Below, piece by piece: positions 17,863-34,183 of a stretch of DNA of 38,968 bases. The notes under the pieces are model-generated. The model worked only from the letters and a program-made list of their open reading frames with translations. It was not told the DNA's origin and searched no databases. The translations under genes and the position numbers were made by a program. Source of the stretch: Cryomorphaceae bacterium BACL7 MAG-120322-bin74 (GTDB lineage Bacteria; Bacteroidota; Bacteroidia; Flavobacteriales; Schleiferiaceae); the NCBI GenBank assembly GCA_001438205.1, contig LICG01000014.1, positions 1-38,968 on the forward strand, written 5' to 3'. Position 1 is the first letter of the stretch. Every line of letters starts with the position of its first letter.

Positions 17863-18394
17863 GCGCACCTTTTCCGCTTAACGCCCCCCTTTTTCCTAAT
17901 TCTATCACGGCCAAATCTTGGACCCGACCATCTTCGATCGTAAATCGCAGCATGGTGCGCATGGCGTGAAATCCATGATGGCCTGCAGCGCCAGGATTTA
18001 AGCACAAAACACCACTCGGATCATGTCCTGCGCGTAGGATATGTGAGTGCCCACAAATGAAAACGTCCGGTTTGTGCACGAGAAGGCCTGCGCGAATCGC
18101 CTTGGGTAACCTGCCAGCAGGTCCCCCAATATGGGTCATCCAGAAGGTTACACCCCCTAGCGTGAAGTGTAGGTCCAGCGGCGCTTCTCTTCGCATAAGG
18201 GCATCATCAATATTGCCATGTACAACTCGTAATGGCTTGATTGATAGTAGCTTATCAATGACATCAAATTGTCCAACATCCCCTGCATGCCATACCTCAT
18301 CAGCCGCTTTTACATGACGTAGTATGTCCTGATCTAAATGACTGTGGGTGTCTGAGAGTAAAAGGATTCGGTGCGCTGTACCTTTGGGTTTCAT
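17852..18394 (-). CDS. YfcE/MJ0936-type metallophosphoesterase
   Basis: This 180-residue calcineurin-like phosphodiesterase has the dimetal motifs in order: LLLSDTHSH (D-x-H), VWHAGDVGQ (GD), VVHGNIDD (GN[H/C]D-type, here GNID), WMTHIGG and FICGHSHILRAG (GHSH). YfcE and MJ0936 hydrolyse phosphodiesters in vitro; the natural substrate is unclear. The start codon is separated from the divergent truA ATG by only two bases, so its promoter must lie within truA. A one-mismatch -7 box (GAAGTTTG, 18400-18407 on the minus strand) is present there. The end overlaps the DUF4293 gene. Confidence 0.9.
   Translation of the reverse strand: MKPKGTAHRILLLSDTHSHLDQDILRHVKAADEVWHAGDVGQFDVIDKLLSIKPLRVVHGNIDDALMRREAPLDLHFTLGGVTFWMTHIGGPAGRLPKAIRAGLLVHKPDVFICGHSHILRAGHDPSGVLCLNPGAAGHHGFHAMRTMLRFTIEDGRVQDLAVIELGKRGALSGKGALTS
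18379..18386 (+). promoter_or_regulatory. Putative -7 box for truA inside the phosphoesterase gene
   Basis: TACCTTTG fits TAnnTTTG and ends ten bases before the truA ATG at 18397. It lies in the first codons of the divergent phosphoesterase gene, so the predicted truA transcript is leaderless or nearly so. Confidence 0.55.
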
Positions 18395-18396
18395 CT

Positions 18397-19179
18397 ATGC
18401 AAACTTCGGAAAACCCTCGTTATGCCCTACGGCTTGCCTATCATGGCGCGCCTTATAGTGGATGGCAAGTTCAACCAGAGCAAAAAACGGTTCAAGCCGA
18501 GCTTGAAAAAACGCTGTCTTCCCTATTGCGCCAAACGACGGAGGTTATAGGGGCGGGCCGAACAGATACGGGGGTGCATGCATCGAACTATGTAGCCCAT
18601 TTTGAAGGGACAGAAAGTTTGGATGTAGAAGATTTGGCCTATCGCCTCAACCGTTTTTTGCCCCCGCGCATTGTCGTGCACGAAATTCAGCCTGTAGATA
18701 AAGAGTTTCATGCACGATTTAGTGCAACTTCGCGCGCCTACCGCTATGTGTTGCGCAGGAGTAAAAATGCATTTGACACCGACGTAGCCTGGTATTTCCA
18801 AAGACCCATGGATTTTGAGAAACTCAAAAGAGCTGCAGCTACGCTTCACAACACGAAAGAATATTCCGCTTTTGCCCGCCTTGGCAGTTATACGGGCACT
18901 ACCCAATGCACCCTATCACATGCCACATGGCGCATGGAAGAGGATTGCTGGATTTTTGAAGTTCGAGCCAATCGCTTCTTGCGTAATATGGTGCGTTCTC
19001 TTGTAGGCACGATGGTAGAGCATGCCCTAGATAAGCGCTCGTGGGACCAGTGGACCTCCCTGCTGCAAGGGGGTGAACGCGCCGATGCAGGGAATTCCGC
19101 CCCTGCACACGGATTAACTTTTGCTGGGGTAACCTATCCTAAATCTCCATTTGATGAGCGCGAAAACGCCTCCTTCTAA
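18397..19179 (+). CDS. truA: tRNA pseudouridine(38-40) synthase TruA
   Basis: This 260-residue enzyme makes pseudouridine at positions 38-40 of the tRNA anticodon arm. The catalytic aspartate lies in GAGRTDTGVHA near residues 52-62. Other family stretches are LAYHGAPYSGWQVQP, FHARFSATSRAYRY, FLRNMVRSLVGTM and APAHGLTF. The length is typical. Transcription probably starts inside the divergent phosphoesterase gene. The last 26 bases overlap the start of the ABC exporter gene. Confidence 0.96.
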   Translation: MQTSENPRYALRLAYHGAPYSGWQVQPEQKTVQAELEKTLSSLLRQTTEVIGAGRTDTGVHASNYVAHFEGTESLDVEDLAYRLNRFLPPRIVVHEIQPVDKEFHARFSATSRAYRYVLRRSKNAFDTDVAWYFQRPMDFEKLKRAAATLHNTKEYSAFARLGSYTGTTQCTLSHATWRMEEDCWIFEVRANRFLRNMVRSLVGTMVEHALDKRSWDQWTSLLQGGERADAGNSAPAHGLTFAGVTYPKSPFDERENASF

Positions 19180-27860: not shown

Positions 27861-28286
27861 TTAATCTTCAAATACTTCAATCAAGGCATTCTTGCGCGTT
27901 AGGTCAGAAAATGTTCCTGAATAACGTGTTGCCCTGACAATGTGGTTGTCAATCCAATGGTAATTGCCTCCCCGGGGTTTGCCCATAAGAAGGCCGTGGT
28001 AAGGGAACTGGTATTGTTGGAGCCAATGTTCTGTCACGCCCCTATGTTCTTCTGTTCTGGAGGTGAAAAAGGTGATAATATGCCCTTCTGCATGCCATTT
28101 TTGAATCGTTTCTAGGGCATCCTGGTAGACAGAGGCGGTGGCCATTCGCTCAGGTTCTTCATTGGGAATATCATCGCAAACCGTTCCGTCAATGTCAATA
28201 AGGTAATTTTTTACCTCCTCTGGCAGAACGGGACTTATTTTTTGTCCATTCACGATCAGTTCTTGAAGCCCCTTTTCTTGTTTCAT
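27861..28286 (-). CDS. Small HAD-superfamily phosphatase-like protein
   Basis: This 141-residue HAD-fold protein has motif I NYLIDIDGTVCDD near residues 25-37, motif II FFTSRTEEHRG (S/T plus R) and a K in LLMGKPRGGNYHWIDNH. It resembles the Bacteroidota proteins sometimes named phosphoheptose isomerase, a name the sequence does not support. Its substrate is unknown. The ATG overlaps the TGA of the FeS membrane gene (ATGA), and the CCG-domain gene follows at once, so it lies between the two genes of a likely redox complex. A longer start at 28310 would only add residues read from the upstream gene. Confidence 0.82.
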   Translation of the reverse strand: MKQEKGLQELIVNGQKISPVLPEEVKNYLIDIDGTVCDDIPNEEPERMATASVYQDALETIQKWHAEGHIITFFTSRTEEHRGVTEHWLQQYQFPYHGLLMGKPRGGNYHWIDNHIVRATRYSGTFSDLTRKNALIEVFED

Positions 28287-29551
28287 CGTTGTGTTGATTC
28301 TGTCATCCATAATCCACGATCAGCCTGCGGATAAGCCCATGGAGCGCCGTTGTTTTCGACATTGGTCATCATCGTATTGAGCGATGCGGGGGCTGCAGAT
28401 TCTTCCATGACCAAGTACTGTCGCATTTGCTGAATGATATCTAAAGGGTCAATGTTCAGCGGGCATACTTCCACGCAGGCATTGCAGGTGGTACATGCCC
28501 AAAGCTCTTCACGACTAATCCAGCCATCGAGGAGCGTTTGCTGGCTTTCCGAATCTTGTAGTATTTGTTCCACGCGGTCGCGCGTAGCCATCATGATTTT
28601 GCGTGGAGAAAGTTTTTTACCCGTTTGGCTGGCAGGACATTCACTTGTGCAACGGCCACATTCCGTACAGGTATAGGCATTCAAAAGGTTGGCAAAATGC
28701 AAGTCTTGGATATCTTTTGCGCCGAATCGGCTCGGTACATCCGAACCATCTGGAACATAGCTAGGGTCTAGCATGGCTTTGATTTCAGTCGTAACAGCCG
28801 CCATGGCAGGAATGCGCCCTCGTGCAGCTAAGTTGCTGTACCACGTGTTAGGGAATGCAAGAATGATATGAAAATGCTTACTCTTGGGTAGGTAATTCAA
28901 AAAAGCGAGGATACCGACAAAGTGAAACCACCAAGCTGCCTTTTCAGTTAGGTGTAATGTGCTTTCTGACCAACCGTTAAACAGAGGTTGAAGATGCCGA
29001 GAAATGATAAAACCGCCTTCTTCTAGGCGCACACTTTCCGCAGCATTCATCACAAATAGCGCCAACATCAAGACAATCTCTGTGTAGAGGATTATGGCCG
29101 CATCCTGGCGTGGCCAGCCGGCCATGTCCGCGTGTTTAAACCGGCCAATCTGGCCAAATGCCCGACGTAAAAGGAAGACAATACAGGCAAGAAGCACGGC
29201 GGCACCTAAGAGTTCAAAGAAGTTGATAAGGATGGGGTAAAATGGACCCATTGGTTGCGCAAATACCCGATGCGTTCCGATAGCTCCGTCGATCAGAATT
29301 TCTAGGACCTCAAGGTTGATCAGAACAAAGCCTACATAAATCAACAAGTGAAAAAAAGCAGCCAGGGGGCGGGTTCCCATTTTTGATTGCCCCATCGCCA
29401 CACGGAGCATAGTACTCCATCGCTCAGATGGCTGATCATGTCGGTGGCTCGGACGTGCGAGCGCCAAACCTTTTCGAAGGCGGATAATCTGGCGTGCAAA
29501 AAGGACTACGCCTAGACTTAGTATGAAAAGGAAGATAATCTGAGAGATCAT
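28283..29551 (-). CDS. Membrane (Fe-S) protein with two 4Fe-4S motifs, HdrC/GlpC-like
   Basis: This 422-residue protein has five hydrophobic segments in its first 250 residues, with several histidines that could bind heme b as in NarI-like subunits (HLLIYVGF, WWFHFVGI). A ferredoxin domain follows, with CTECGRCTSECP and CTTCNACVEVCP. The pattern resembles the fused membrane cytochrome-ferredoxin proteins of the HdrE/HdrC or DsrM/K kind. It probably passes electrons between quinones and the CCG-domain protein encoded downstream. The ATG overlaps the stop of the MCE gene (ATGA), so the three downstream genes are translationally linked to a lipid-transport protein. Confidence 0.9.
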   Translation of the reverse strand: MISQIIFLFILSLGVVLFARQIIRLRKGLALARPSHRHDQPSERWSTMLRVAMGQSKMGTRPLAAFFHLLIYVGFVLINLEVLEILIDGAIGTHRVFAQPMGPFYPILINFFELLGAAVLLACIVFLLRRAFGQIGRFKHADMAGWPRQDAAIILYTEIVLMLALFVMNAAESVRLEEGGFIISRHLQPLFNGWSESTLHLTEKAAWWFHFVGILAFLNYLPKSKHFHIILAFPNTWYSNLAARGRIPAMAAVTTEIKAMLDPSYVPDGSDVPSRFGAKDIQDLHFANLLNAYTCTECGRCTSECPASQTGKKLSPRKIMMATRDRVEQILQDSESQQTLLDGWISREELWACTTCNACVEVCPLNIDPLDIIQQMRQYLVMEESAAPASLNTMMTNVENNGAPWAYPQADRGLWMTESTQR

Positions 29552-30525
29552 TCGTCTTTTTTAGCCTCTTTGTCGCGGCCTCCAAATATGGAAAATTCTA
29601 CATAACGGCCCGGATGTTCGCGAATGTCTTCGAGGAGTTTATCCAATGAGAGGATGGCATGATTCACTTCATTGTACAGGGAGTCATTGCTGACCAATTT
29701 GCCAAGGGTTCCTTCCCCGCGCTCTATTGAACCTGTAAGGGCATCTAAACGTTGCGCAGTTTTGCTTAGACTGCGTATGGCAGCCCCTGCATTCGATTGG
29801 GCTAGGGTGTCTGAAATAGTGGCCAAATTGTTGAAGACGCGGTCCAGTTCATCCCTATTTTCATTGAGCATGCCGGTTAAGCGTTCCAAATTCTTTGTGG
29901 CTGAGCCGAGTGCTTCACGATTGTCCGTCATGTAGGCGCTAAGTTCATCTGTGATAGTGCTCAGGTTGAGAACGCTTCGGTTGACATTGGAAAAGGAGGT
30001 GCGTAATTCCGATTGCATTTCACCACCCAAAAAGCCACTCAGAATGTTGATGGTAGAATCTAGGCTAGACAATAATTTCTCCGCTTTTAGTTTTACGGGT
30101 AAGACTTCTTTATTGATCGATTCTGAAATGGACTCTTCAACACTCGCACGCAGGGTATCTCCTTTTTCAATAAGGACAGATCCTTTTTCAAGAATTAAGG
30201 CTATTTCTTTGGCCCCAAGCAAATCGGCTGAGCGGATTTCCGCAAGGCTATTGGCTGTAATAGGGTAATCGCTGGTAATCTTCATTTTGACCACAATTCG
30301 GCCCGAATTGTCCGGATGGAAGTAGACATCGGATACCTTGCCCACGGCAAAACCATTGATGGTCACATTCTGGCTTTTGGTGATGCCTTCGGTATTGTCG
30401 TAAACAGCAAATATGTCAATGCCTTTTTTAAAAAGATCGGAACCTTTCAGGAAACCAATGCCCCAATAGAGCACTCCAGCGGCGAGAATAACGGCAATGC
30501 CGGCTTTGAATTCACGTGACATCAT
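29548..30525 (-). CDS. MlaD/MCE-family protein
   Basis: This 325-residue protein has an N-terminal anchor (FKAGIAVILAAGVLYWGIGFL), an MCE domain of about residues 38-120 (VYDNTEGITKSQNVTINGFAVGKV, ADLLGAKEIALI) and a long helical C-terminal part with regular heptad-like repeats (DELSAYMTDNREALGSATKNLERL). MCE proteins bind lipids in MlaD-type hexamers and move phospholipids between membranes. No mlaE or mlaF genes are adjacent, so the rest of the transporter must be elsewhere. It is encoded 18 bases after the amidase gene. The start could be either ATG at 30525 or 30522. Confidence 0.92.
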   Translation of the reverse strand: MMSREFKAGIAVILAAGVLYWGIGFLKGSDLFKKGIDIFAVYDNTEGITKSQNVTINGFAVGKVSDVYFHPDNSGRIVVKMKITSDYPITANSLAEIRSADLLGAKEIALILEKGSVLIEKGDTLRASVEESISESINKEVLPVKLKAEKLLSSLDSTINILSGFLGGEMQSELRTSFSNVNRSVLNLSTITDELSAYMTDNREALGSATKNLERLTGMLNENRDELDRVFNNLATISDTLAQSNAGAAIRSLSKTAQRLDALTGSIERGEGTLGKLVSNDSLYNEVNHAILSLDKLLEDIREHPGRYVEFSIFGGRDKEAKKDE

Positions 30526-30543: not shown

Positions 30544-31695
30544 TTATTGGGTAAGGCTTTCTGCTTCAGATATCGAGATCCTTTCCATGCCTTTGTAGGC
30601 AACGATGAAGGCATCAGGAAATCCTTTTGCTTGATGGAGGGGCAATCCAGCTTTGGCTGCCTCTAGGTTTTCATAGTGCCCTTGAAGATAGCGGTATAAG
30701 CGTCCGTCAGGCTGAATCCATGCGTCTTCCAATCCCTTAAAGGGGGACTCGGAAAGGGGTTTCTTGAGACCCGATACAGAGAGTTGTACCGCAAAGACCA
30801 CTTTTGGTGCGGGAGGTGGGGTGACTGCAGCTGGCTGAGGCGTTGTGCTTACGGCTCCATTTGTTTCTTGCGAAGGGGAAGGTAACCCACGTTCGCGGCG
30901 CGCTTTATAGGCCCCAAAAGAACGTGCAATAGCACTGGCCATTTGGTCTTGCCCTTCTGCGCTGTGCAAGTAATCTTCTTCGGTACTGTTGGTAAGGTAA
31001 CCCAATTCAATCAATACGGAAGGCATCGAGCAGCGGCTGGTTACATAAAAGGGCGCCTGTCTCACGCCGCGATCACGCCGTCCCACATCATTTTTAAAGG
31101 AATTTTGGACCGTTTGGGCAAATTCTATGCTTTGCGTTTGGAAGGCATACTGGTATAGGGTTAAGGCAATGTAACTCTCCGGTTTTCTGGGATCAAAGCC
31201 TTCATATTTGTCTTGGTAGTCATCCTCCATCAGGATGACGGAATTTTCTCGCAGGGCAACTTGGTTTTCGTCGTCGTGGTCTTTCCCCATTACATACGTT
31301 GTGGCACCATAAGCGGTCTTGTTCTCTGCTGCATCACAATGGATACTAATGAAGAGATCCCCTTTCTCTCTATTGGCAATGGCAGTCCGCTCATAGAGCT
31401 CAAGGAAGCGGTCAGTATTGCGTGTAAGCACCACTTCTACATCGGGGTAAAGCGCTTTAATCTTGGCCGCCAGTTGCTGTGCAAGGTCTAGTGCCACATC
31501 CTTTTCTGTCGTCCTGTAGCGTCTTGTCCCTAAGTTTCCAGGGTCCTTTCCTCCGTGGCCAGCGTCAATGACCACTTTTTGAACACGGTCAGAAGATCCA
31601 GTCGCGGGTCGGAAACCGAGATAGGGAAGCGCAATTACCGCAATAAGAAACCAGCTCAGGCGTTGCAATGCAGTACTTTTGGACATCGTATTCAT
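30544..31695 (-). CDS. N-acetylmuramoyl-L-alanine amidase with C-terminal SPOR-like domain
   Basis: From the ATG at 31695 this protein has about 383 residues. It has a signal anchor (LSWFLIAVIALPYLGF), an Amidase_3 domain with zinc ligands in VVIDAGHGGKDPG, the E of RTTEKD and the H of LFISIHCDAAEN, and ends with a tail (VFAVQLSVSGLKK ... AFIVAY) that looks like a SPOR-type peptidoglycan-binding domain. It cleaves the bond between MurNAc and L-alanine, probably at division sites. The ATG shares its CATG with the start of the divergent LptD gene; the next in-frame ATG is at 31686. Its promoter box (31707-31714) lies inside the LptD gene. Longer in-frame starts lie inside LptD. Confidence 0.92.
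   Translation of the reverse strand: MNTMSKSTALQRLSWFLIAVIALPYLGFRPATGSSDRVQKVVIDAGHGGKDPGNLGTRRYRTTEKDVALDLAQQLAAKIKALYPDVEVVLTRNTDRFLELYERTAIANREKGDLFISIHCDAAENKTAYGATTYVMGKDHDDENQVALRENSVILMEDDYQDKYEGFDPRKPESYIALTLYQYAFQTQSIEFAQTVQNSFKNDVGRRDRGVRQAPFYVTSRCSMPSVLIELGYLTNSTEEDYLHSAEGQDQMASAIARSFGAYKARRERGLPSPSQETNGAVSTTPQPAAVTPPPAPKVVFAVQLSVSGLKKPLSESPFKGLEDAWIQPDGRLYRYLQGHYENLEAAKAGLPLHQAKGFPDAFIVAYKGMERISISEAESLTQ
31674..31681 (+). promoter_or_regulatory. Putative -7 box for the LptD gene, inside the amidase gene
   Basis: TACTTTTG matches TAnnTTTG and ends 12 bases before the LptD ATG at 31694. It lies inside the first codons of the divergent amidase gene. Confidence 0.55.
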
Positions 31696-34183
31696 GGGGA
31701 TAGGAACAAAATTACGCGGTTTCGCGCCAATATGCCTGCTCGTCTTAGGGACTTTTTCCCTTAAGGCGCAAGAAGCCGTGTCCAATAGCCCCATCCAATT
31801 TCGTTCCAAACAAGATGGCCTCTACCTCGCTCAAGAGAATGCGGTGTTATTGCGGGAGGATGCCGTTGTGACCATGGAGGGGATAGAACTCAAGGCCTTT
31901 TACATCAAAATAGACCAAGGAAACCAGACCCTGATTGCCTATGGAGAACCCAACGCACTTGGGCAAGTGGTGGGTAGACCCATTTTTACGCAAGGAAACC
32001 GCACTTTTGGAGCAGACACATTAAAGTATAATTATCAGACCCAAAAAGGGTGGGTATTTCAAGGAAATACAACGGAAAATGGCGGATATCTCCATGGGGA
32101 CAGGATCAAAATGATGGAGGATAGTTCCTACTTCTTGGGTCGTGCCTCCTTTACCACGTGTAATCATGAACATCCACACTTTGCCATTGTGGCCCAAAAA
32201 GCGAGGCTTGACGTTGGGAAAAGAATCGTTACCGGCCCTGCATTTCTGGAAATTCTAGATTTACCCACGCCGCTTGGATTGCCCTTTGCATTTTTTCCCA
32301 TCATGGATAAGCGGGCCTCAGGCTACATTTTGCCCACGTTTACGGACAAACGTGAATGGGGTCTCGGTCTAATGGGAGGCGGCTATTACTGGGCATTTGA
32401 TGACCATTATGATTTGCGCTTGACCGGGGATGTGTATACGCAAGGTTCCTATGGGATTCAAGCGACAAGTAATTACCGTTTTCGTTATCGGTATGCAGGT
32501 AATGTGGGTTTGCAGATCAACAGAACCCGCTTTGGTGACCCACGCCAAACCACGGGTCCGTTCATGGATTCAAGAGATTTTCGTGTAACATGGAGCCATA
32601 CGCAAGATGCAAAAGCGCATCCGAGTCAATCGTTCAGCGCTAGGCTAGAGTTGGCCACGGGGTCCTTTTTTAAGAATACGACAACGAATGCCCAAGACTT
32701 TCAGAAGAATGATATGTCCTCTTCTATTAGTTATACCAAGCGGTGGCCAGGAAGTCCCTTTTCGCTCACAGCGGCTGCGCGTCACAGACAAAACAACCAG
32801 AATGGCACGCTGTCTTTGAGCCTGCCTGATGTCAATTTTGGCATGAGTAGAATTCAGCCTTTTGCACGAAGAAACCCTATCGGGGGTTCGCGATGGTATG
32901 AAAAGATCGGTCTTACCTATAGCATGCAGGGAAAAAATGAGACCAATGGATTGTTGACTGAAATGACCACCCCTTCCGTTTTGTTTCAGTCGGATCGTCT
33001 TCGGGCTGGGGTCAACCATTCTGCCAATATGGGCACCAACATCAAAGTCTTGCGGTTTATCACAATCAACCCCAATGCAACCTATCAAGAACGCTGGTAT
33101 CCGTATGCCCTAAATTATCAGTGGGATTCCATTGCTGAAGACGTTGTGCGCGATACGGTTCCGGGATTTTTTGCTGCCAGAGAATTTGGGGTGAGTGCAG
33201 GTGCGAGTACGACCCTGTATGGTATCTTCAATATCAAAAATGGACCTGTAAAAGCCTTGCGCCACATGGTGTATCCTTCGGTGAGCTGGCGTTATGTCCC
33301 TGATTTTACGGAAGGTCGTTGGAATGCTTTCCAGACCGTACAAAGCGATACGGCAGGGACGATCAAATCATTCAGCCGCTTTCAAGGATTTATCTATGGT
33401 GCCCCGGGAGTGGGAAGCCAGGGCGGGATCAATTTTAGGTTGCGCAACACCCTTGATGGCAAATGGATGCGGGGAGACTCCGGCACCCTGAAAAAATTCA
33501 ACGTCCTAGAAGATTTTACTTTAGAAAGCAATTACAATCCGCTATTGGTTCGTAATCCGCTGAGTCCTGTAGGGGTGAGAGCAAGTACGAGTTTTTTGAA
33601 AAGCAAAATCAGAATGTCCTACCAAGGTTCCTATGATTGGTATGCCCAAGATTCAACGGGCCAGCGTTCAGAGGACCTTGCCTACCAAGAAGGACAAGGG
33701 TGGTTGCGCCCCGCCTTGCATCAGTTTTCCGTTGACTTGCGTTTCAGAGGTGGTGCTGCGGCAGGCCGCCCTAACGCCCCTCTCAATGAGTTTGGCTTAG
33801 AGCAAGATCTTTACCCGGATTATTACGGTGCCATGCCTTTTATGGATTGGCATGCGCCCTGGACCTTTAATGTGGGATACTCTCTTCGGCAGAATGCACA
33901 GGCTGGATCCATGGAGTTGAAAACAACTCAAAGCGTTCGGATGGATGCTTCGTGGGAGCCAACGGCAAACTGGCGATTAGGCGTGACGACGGGGTACGAT
34001 GTCAAAGCGCAAAGTTTTACGTTTACCACCATTGATGTGCTTCGCCAACTGCATTGTTGGGAAATGCGCATTCGCTGGGTGCCTTTTGGCTACGCACGTT
34101 CCTACAATATTGGTATCGGAGTAAAAGCACCTTTGATGTCCGCGCTAAAACTTGAGCGTCGACGGGGGATCGGTGATTATTAA
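31694..34183 (+). CDS. lptD: Putative LPS-assembly outer-membrane protein LptD (OstA-like)
   Basis: This 829-residue protein has a signal peptide ending near FSLKAQ, an N-terminal beta-jellyroll (OstA-like) domain of about residues 25-170 and a large barrel of many aromatic-ended strands. Bacteroidota LptD features are seen in YNYQTQKGWVFQG, GYLHGDRIKM, TTCNHEHPHFAI, RIVTGPAFLEI and PTPLGLPFAFFPI. It inserts lipopolysaccharide into the outer leaflet of the outer membrane. The ATG at 31694 follows a perfect -7 box by 12 bases and overlaps the start codon of the amidase gene on the other strand. The cysteine pattern of E. coli LptD is not conserved, as usual in this branch. Confidence 0.9.
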   Translation: MGIGTKLRGFAPICLLVLGTFSLKAQEAVSNSPIQFRSKQDGLYLAQENAVLLREDAVVTMEGIELKAFYIKIDQGNQTLIAYGEPNALGQVVGRPIFTQGNRTFGADTLKYNYQTQKGWVFQGNTTENGGYLHGDRIKMMEDSSYFLGRASFTTCNHEHPHFAIVAQKARLDVGKRIVTGPAFLEILDLPTPLGLPFAFFPIMDKRASGYILPTFTDKREWGLGLMGGGYYWAFDDHYDLRLTGDVYTQGSYGIQATSNYRFRYRYAGNVGLQINRTRFGDPRQTTGPFMDSRDFRVTWSHTQDAKAHPSQSFSARLELATGSFFKNTTTNAQDFQKNDMSSSISYTKRWPGSPFSLTAAARHRQNNQNGTLSLSLPDVNFGMSRIQPFARRNPIGGSRWYEKIGLTYSMQGKNETNGLLTEMTTPSVLFQSDRLRAGVNHSANMGTNIKVLRFITINPNATYQERWYPYALNYQWDSIAEDVVRDTVPGFFAAREFGVSAGASTTLYGIFNIKNGPVKALRHMVYPSVSWRYVPDFTEGRWNAFQTVQSDTAGTIKSFSRFQGFIYGAPGVGSQGGINFRLRNTLDGKWMRGDSGTLKKFNVLEDFTLESNYNPLLVRNPLSPVGVRASTSFLKSKIRMSYQGSYDWYAQDSTGQRSEDLAYQEGQGWLRPALHQFSVDLRFRGGAAAGRPNAPLNEFGLEQDLYPDYYGAMPFMDWHAPWTFNVGYSLRQNAQAGSMELKTTQSVRMDASWEPTANWRLGVTTGYDVKAQSFTFTTIDVLRQLHCWEMRIRWVPFGYARSYNIGIGVKAPLMSALKLERRRGIGDY
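31707..31714 (-). promoter_or_regulatory. Putative -7 box for the amidase-MCE operon, inside the LptD gene
   Basis: The minus strand reads TAATTTTG, ending 11 bases before the amidase ATG at 31695. It overlaps codons 5-7 of the divergent LptD gene, face to face with the LptD promoter box at 31674. Confidence 0.5.

What the first reader, a model, noticed from the sequence alone, without database searches (positions are those of the whole stretch)
31674..31714. Interlocked start of the LptD gene and the amidase-MCE operon
The LptD ATG (31694-31696, plus) and the amidase ATG (31695-31693, minus) share one CATG. Each has a perfect TAnnTTTG -7 box inside the other's coding region: TACTTTTG at 31674-31681 and TAATTTTG at 31707-31714. 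If these boxes work, the two RNAs start near 31688 and 31700 and run towards and past each other, so each polymerase must cross the other promoter. The two units build LPS transport on one side and peptidoglycan cleavage plus MCE lipid transport on the other. Mutual exclusion at a single site would give an automatic balance between outer-membrane LPS insertion and lipid or wall turnover. This regulatory reading is inference; geometry and boxes are seen directly. I know of no description of it.
Basis: partly seen in the sequence, partly recalled or inferred. Interest (0 to 1): 0.75.

Follow-up and report, generated by a model that had tools for sequence, protein, structure and literature searches.

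The report
Two facing, overlapping promoters at lptD
The start signals of two neighbouring cell-envelope genes point at each other and overlap so closely that probably only one polymerase fits at a time, and the same facing arrangement recurs in many distantly related bacteria of the class, although how it regulates the genes is still untested.

Summary
lptD (ATG 31694-31696, +) and the amidase (ATG 31695-31693, -) share CATG. TACTTTTG (31674-31681, +) and TAATTTTG (31714-31707, -) lie inside the partner genes. In the 21 of 22 genus genomes with an intact junction, the plus box is invariant at 8 of 8 positions and the minus box at 6 of 6 consensus positions, while both minus-box N positions vary; 28 of 174 other columns are invariant. 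The boxes are under DNA-level selection.

The shared CATG is the lesser part: it holds in 15 of 21 genomes and looks like local compaction. The deeper feature is promoter geometry: facing -7 boxes in 71 of 94 order-level junctions and in 24 of 39 class-level junctions picked for adjacent genes, with spacing concentrated at 20-39 nt. Among 30 other divergent pairs with boxes on both sides, one has a facing pair 16 nt or more apart.

Expected starts are 31686 and 31702, a 17-nt overlap. Mutual exclusion of polymerases is a geometric inference. The proposed LPS-versus-wall balance is not supported: in Riemerella, loss of PhoP raises lptD and the amidase together.

The parts
31674..31681 (+). -7 box TACTTTTG of the lptD promoter, inside the amidase coding region
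   Evidence: Sequence; invariant at 8 of 8 columns in 21 of 21 genus junctions; a facing TAnnTTTG pair at the junction in 71 of 94 order-level and 24 of 39 class-level cases
31686..31686 (+). Expected lptD transcription start (G of the box at -5)
   Evidence: Inferred from the -12 to -5 placement in PMC6847099 and PMC9723704; not measured
31707..31714 (-). -7 box TAATTTTG of the amidase promoter, inside the lptD coding region
   Evidence: Sequence; six consensus columns invariant and both N columns variable in 21 of 21; read on the plus strand the N letters are AT, AC, GT or GG
31702..31702 (-). Expected amidase transcription start
   Evidence: Inferred from the same placement; not measured
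31686..31702 (.). 17-nt stretch expected to be transcribed on both strands, containing both start codons
   Evidence: Follows from the two inferred starts
31693..31696 (.). CATG shared by the lptD start (+) and the amidase start (-)
   Evidence: shared and in frame for both genes in 15 of 21 genus junctions
31694..34183 (+). lptD (LPS assembly protein)
   Evidence: Pfam LptD_2, E 2.6e-147
30544..31695 (-). N-acetylmuramoyl-L-alanine amidase, first gene of the minus unit
   Evidence: Pfam Amidase_3, E 2.4e-53
29548..30525 (-). MlaD/MCE protein, second gene of the minus unit
   Evidence: Pfam MlaD, E 7.7e-16
28283..29551 (-). Fe-S protein overlapping the MlaD gene end by 4 nt
   Evidence: Pfam Fer4 families; ORF list

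Best explanation
The junction carries two housekeeping-sigma promoters facing each other: the lptD promoter starts near 31686 and the amidase-MCE promoter near 31702, so the RNAs overlap by 17 nt at their 5' ends. This is the local form of an old arrangement that recurs in the class Bacteroidia, in which the two -7 boxes face each other with a start-to-start spacing mostly of 20-39 nt. In this genus the space between the genes has collapsed, so each box now lies in the partner's coding region and the start codons share CATG. By geometry the two polymerase footprints overlap, so only one promoter can be occupied at a time on one DNA molecule. Selection has kept the overlap, most likely to tie the two units to one shared control point (common operator, coupled output) rather than to run a see-saw. 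Shown: sequence, DNA-level constraint on both boxes, taxonomic spread, spacing peak, rarity elsewhere. Inferred: start sites, mutual exclusion, the reason for selection.
For: Boxes: 14 of 14 consensus columns invariant in 21 genomes against 28 of 174 other columns (hypergeometric 1.1e-10, phylogeny not corrected for); third codon positions under the plus box and the minus consensus letters 5 of 5 invariant against 4 of 71 elsewhere. Order level: facing pair (d 16-80) in 71 of 94 junctions against 0.60 expected in Markov resamples. Class level: 24 of 39 against 0.45 expected. Group-weighted offsets of box pairs: 43 in the 20-39 nt bins, at most 5.0 in any other 10-nt bin, over 73 genus or family groups. 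Rarity: among 172 divergent pairs in samples of four genomes, 31 have a box on both sides; 23 are back-to-back only, 6 have boxes 9-15 nt apart only, 2 have a facing pair at 16 nt or more, one of them this locus.
Against: Geometry is inherited stably elsewhere too: the control pair aminotransferase/DUF4920 is back-to-back in all 20 of 30 loci that have a box on both sides (15 in the window's genus, 5 in other genera), so persistence alone does not prove selection for overlap. 16 of 16 examined genomes of genus g6 lack a perfect minus box. 14 of 39 class-level junctions show no facing perfect pair and one shows overlapping boxes; allowing one mismatch recovers 5 of these 15 against about 1.7 expected (my sum). 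No transcript start has been measured. A TTG 21-25 nt upstream, as for a -33 element, is seen on the lptD side in 0 of 29 genera and on the amidase side in 6 of 29.
Confidence: 0.65

Rival explanations
1. See-saw: mutual exclusion of polymerases sets an automatic inverse balance between LPS transport and peptidoglycan/MCE lipid turnover.
For: Facing promoters with an expected 17-nt overlap should not be occupied together (geometry and the placement); narrow spacing peak; in E. coli strong activation of one direction can repress the other (PMC12825309).
Against: Same paper: no competition at basal activity in five of five promoters tested. In Riemerella anatipestifer loss of PhoP raises the amidase and lptD together (PMC9603813 Table 1).
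Confidence: 0.2
2. History and compaction only: the facing order arose once, is hard to invert by small indels, and the interlock in this genus is genome streamlining without regulatory meaning.
For: The control pair keeps its order too (20 of 20 informative loci, six genera). In the genome sample 7 of 57 divergent pairs have start gaps of 20 nt or less, and box-to-start distances are short (median 16 nt against 33, 25 and 23 in three other genomes).
Against: Facing order is kept in 3-5 Mb genomes with room between the genes. Spacing is not free: 43 group-weighted offsets fall at 20-39 nt, whereas the control pair's nearest spacing runs from 9 to 62 nt within one family. The control was not followed beyond the family.
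Confidence: 0.3
3. The complementary 5' ends, which here include both start codons, pair and mutually limit translation or stability (excludon-like RNA effect).
For: 17-nt perfect complementarity over both AUGs in the window follows from the inferred starts; expected overlaps are 4-23 nt where d is 20-39 (arithmetic).
Against: Expected overlaps are very short in many groups, and apart from the lptD ATG no column between the boxes is invariant in the genus. No RNA data.
Confidence: 0.1
4. The boxes are by-products of conserved signal-peptide residues and not promoters.
For: Both boxes lie in coding sequence in the window.
Against: Third codon positions under consensus letters are invariant, the minus-box N positions vary, and the plus box stays where the amidase start has probably moved past it; in larger genomes a facing pair is found between or near the gene starts.
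Confidence: 0.03

Closest known systems
Face-to-face divergent promoters such as E. coli bioA/bioBFCD and argE/argCBH (recalled from general knowledge; my one library search for argE/argCBH, listed nothing usable)
   Same: Divergent genes whose promoters point at each other, so start regions and 5' ends overlap
   Different: Here the -7 boxes are of the Bacteroidota TAnnTTTG type, the arrangement recurs in a class with a narrow spacing, and in this genus the boxes lie inside the partner genes
E. coli bidirectional promoters (PMC12825309, abstract and passages)
   Same: One polymerase binding event is expected to block the other
   Different: Those have starts on either side of or within one shared -10 element, most often 18 bp apart; here there are two separate boxes 33 nt apart and the RNAs are expected to overlap
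Excludons (only search listing seen)
   Same: Overlapping transcripts of divergent units
   Different: Known ones, as recalled, use long overlaps; here about 17 nt
PhoP-regulated lptD/amidase locus of Riemerella anatipestifer (PMC9603813, passages and sections 5 and 7)
   Same: Amidase, lptD and RidA carry neighbouring locus numbers; listed as direct PhoP targets, all up in the deletion mutant
   Different: Promoter geometry of that locus is not described in the parts I read, and its sequence was not examined here

Membership tests
Housekeeping-sigma promoters of Bacteroidota (-7 box TAnnTTTG) | Six consensus positions of the -7 box present and conserved, N positions free | tested here: met
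   14 of 14 columns counted (plus box 8, minus consensus 6) invariant and 0 of 2 minus-box N columns invariant in 21 genomes; the plus box's own N columns do not vary in the genus
Housekeeping-sigma promoters of Bacteroidota (-7 box TAnnTTTG) | -33 element TTTG/TTG at usual spacing | tested here: not met
   TTG 21-25 nt upstream: 0 of 21 genus genomes on either side; over 29 genera 0 (lptD side) and 6 (amidase side). Promoter-proximal boxes of the own-genome sample show no peak there, those of G024 a modest one, so the element may be weak in this lineage
Housekeeping-sigma promoters of Bacteroidota (-7 box TAnnTTTG) | Transcript 5' end about 5 nt after the box | not testable with these tools
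   Needs RNA data
Face-to-face divergent promoters | Promoters of a divergent gene pair point at each other and transcripts overlap at the 5' end | tested here: met
   By sequence only: plus box left of minus box, d 33; starts inferred
Face-to-face divergent promoters | Shared operator controlling both promoters | tested here: inconclusive
   Candidate TTATTAACG in 23 loci of 11 other genera, absent from 21 of 21 junctions of this genus; binding untested
Bidirectional promoters sharing one symmetric -10 element | Divergent starts on either side of, or within, one shared element | tested here: not met
   Two separate boxes 33 nt apart
Excludon | Long transcript of one unit antisense to the divergent neighbour and repressing it | not testable with these tools
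   Expected overlap only 17 nt; no RNA data

The most novel reading that the evidence does not exclude
Across the class Bacteroidia the lptD and amidase-MCE units are driven from a pair of facing promoters whose spacing is held at 20-39 nt so that only one polymerase can load at a time; this single loading site couples outer-membrane LPS insertion to cell-wall cleavage and lipid traffic, and in this genus it has been compressed until each promoter lies in the partner's gene and the two start codons share four bases.
Probability: 0.3. Interest if true: 0.8.

Novelty: new variant of a known kind. Interest (0 to 1): 0.6.

Why it matters
Envelope growth needs LPS insertion, wall remodelling and lipid traffic to keep step, and how Bacteroidota coordinate them is, to my knowledge, poorly known. 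A promoter pair kept facing and overlapping in many families of a class is a concrete, testable place for such coupling. It also gives a natural series of spacings for studying polymerase competition outside E. coli. Seven paper searches (listings) showed no paper that, by title or opening of abstract, describes this promoter pair; most subscription journals are not held.

Tried and rejected
A -33 element at usual spacing: absent in the genus, 0 and 6 of 29 genera on the two sides. A regulon for the extended lptD motif TTTTGNTTAGYTTTGGC of larger-genome genera: exact at this locus in 5 of 6 genomes and with one mismatch in the sixth, with one further 1-mismatch hit in three of them; the backward control pattern also hit once in three of the six. 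The extension may only be the A-rich amidase leader read from the other strand (my inference). A regulon for GTTAATAAAATGATA: exact at this locus in 4 of 8 genomes and with one mismatch in a fifth; four other 1-mismatch hits, fewer than the nine of the backward control. Chance and protein constraint as sources of the boxes: rejected. The CATG interlock as the conserved core: rejected, 15 of 21. The inheritance control weakens the argument from persistence and is kept as a rival. The paper search for argE/argCBH listed mostly unrelated papers.

Rows dropped before counts: G001 (contig break) from the genus alignment; L094, L095 and L107 (contig end or wrong stretch) from the family set; L289 (no amidase found) from the class set. 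The class set was chosen by me from genomes where both genes lie near each other on one contig in the capped listings; genomes of families f22, f38, f49, f65 and f75 with the genes on different contigs, and one of f43 with them about 5 kb apart, were seen and not fetched.
Full report
What is there. The window is contig C14 of a 1.74 Mb genome in 77 contigs. Five of its genus relatives match, by equal contig length, records titled Schleiferiaceae (2), Cryomorphaceae (2) or Flavobacteriales (1) bacterium. Pfam confirms LptD, Amidase_3 and MlaD, followed by Fe-S proteins. Using T at -12 and G at -5 (PMC6847099, passages; PMC9723704, section 15 part 1), I expect starts at 31686 and 31702, leaders of 8 and 7 nt, and a 17-nt overlap that contains both start codons.

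Are the boxes real. Motif counts in the window do not exceed chance. But in 439 kb of this genome 29 of 169 leading genes have the box 0-14 nt before the start, and boxes near starts avoid G at -10 and -9, as reported for F. johnsoniae. In the 21 of 22 genus genomes with an intact junction, plus box 8 of 8 columns and minus box 6 of 6 consensus columns are invariant, both minus-box N columns vary, and 28 of 174 other columns are invariant. Third codon positions under the plus box and the minus consensus letters: 5 of 5 invariant; elsewhere 4 of 71. Phylogenetic relatedness is not corrected for in the hypergeometric value of 1.1e-10.

The interlock. CATG serves both starts in frame in 15 of 21 genomes. 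In L008-L012 the amidase frame has no ATG there, and in L013 a CATG exists but out of the amidase frame; in all six an in-frame ATG lies just beyond the box. The boxes stay unchanged. Tight divergent starts are common in this genome: 7 of 57 pairs in the sample have a gap of 20 nt or less, though starts come from my own simple caller; of these seven only this pair has perfect boxes on both sides.

How old is the geometry. I examined 94 junctions at order level (21 genus, 53 other family members, 20 from other families). 67 have a facing pair only and 4 have both facing and back-to-back pairs, against 0.60 facing expected. Misses: 23, of which 16 are one small-genome genus (g6). There the plus box stays and the minus side reads TAATTTGC or TATTTTGC in 16 of 16 (read), which fits the TAnnTTGY form described for a presumed alternative sigma in F. 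psychrophilum. At class level I fetched 40 junctions from 197 searched genomes, picking cases where both genes lie near each other on one contig, so this set says nothing on how often the genes are adjacent. Of 39 with a recognisable amidase, 20 are facing, 4 both, 1 overlapping, 14 none; 0.45 facing expected. Allowing one mismatch recovers 5 of the 15 others against about 1.7 expected (my sum). Over 73 genus or family groups, pair offsets concentrate at 20-39 nt: 21.0 and 22.0 group-weighted pairs in the two bins, at most 5.0 in any other.

How unusual is it. In samples of four genomes (G000, G024, G115, G071), 172 divergent pairs gave 31 with a box from 10 nt inside to 120 nt upstream of both starts: 23 back-to-back only, 6 with boxes 9-15 nt apart only, and 2 with a facing pair at 16 nt or more, one of them this locus. 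As an inheritance control I followed the window pair aminotransferase/DUF4920 (24864/24952) in 30 loci: back-to-back in 20 (15 of the window's genus, 5 of other genera), a box on one side only in 10, nearest spacing 9-62 nt. Order is thus inherited stably in general, at least within the family; it is the rarity together with the narrow spacing over the class that argues for selection here.

How it may work. Footprints of two polymerases starting 17 nt apart and facing should overlap, so occupancy should be exclusive; this is geometry, not measurement. Whether exclusion matters depends on promoter strength: in E. coli, shared promoters competed only when one direction was strongly activated (PMC12825309, abstract and passages). 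The only expression data I found on this gene pair speak for common control: in Riemerella anatipestifer the phoP deletion raises the amidase (1.61), lptD (1.84) and RidA (1.72) together, and these are in its table of directly PhoP-repressed genes (PMC9603813, section 7). The most conserved letters of the PhoP motif are TTTAACA (section 5). Both order-level junctions of family f6 carry that string about 25 nt from the amidase box (L130, L131); whether f6 is the family of Riemerella I do not know. In 23 loci of 11 other genera of the window's family the codons TTA TTA ACG of the lptD signal peptide recur unchanged, 38-40 nt upstream of the amidase box in the 22 that have a facing pair, although ACG is only 10-14% of threonine codons in the two sampled genomes of that group. 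That is a candidate operator; it is absent from 21 of 21 junctions of the window's genus.

Verdict. Observation confirmed and strengthened; interpretation partly supported. The conserved thing is the facing promoter pair, not the shared CATG, and its function is open between a shared control point, a see-saw, and inherited history.

Noticed in passing
Own genome sample L136-L155 plus window; compare L156-L175, L185-L204, L205-L224: Box-to-start distances are short in this genome: median 16 nt and 18 of 58 at 4-6 nt (expected leader 0-2 nt), against medians 33, 25 and 23 nt and 4 of 44, 5 of 73 and 4 of 42 at 4-6 nt in three other genomes. Near-leaderless mRNAs may be common in this genus.
   Followed up: partly
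LptD signal-peptide region of 23 loci between L063 and L115, e.g. L069: TTATTAACG (the search key that selected these loci) is accompanied by an invariant TTG, the presumed lptD start, with 27 nt between them, in 23 of 23 loci of 11 genera, within an otherwise variable signal peptide.
   Followed up: partly
L188, L193, L194, L201 (genome G115): Four divergent pairs with facing boxes only 13-15 nt apart, three of them at exactly 13: possible symmetric bidirectional promoters.
   Followed up: no
L093-L114 (genus g6, 16 genomes): lptD box kept, amidase side carries TAATTTGC or TATTTTGC instead of TAnnTTTG, resembling the TAnnTTGY motif of F. psychrophilum.
   Followed up: partly
window 18379-18397: Another tight divergent pair (metallophosphoesterase / tRNA pseudouridine synthase, gap 2) with TACCTTTG 10 nt before the plus start, inside the partner gene, and no perfect box on the other side.
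   Followed up: partly
lptD box in larger-genome genera of the family, e.g. L069-L082: Box has G at -10 (TAGCTTTG, TAGTTTTG or TAGATTTG) in 12 of the 14 family genera listed other than g1 and g12, a base described as virtually absent there in F. johnsoniae promoters.
   Followed up: no
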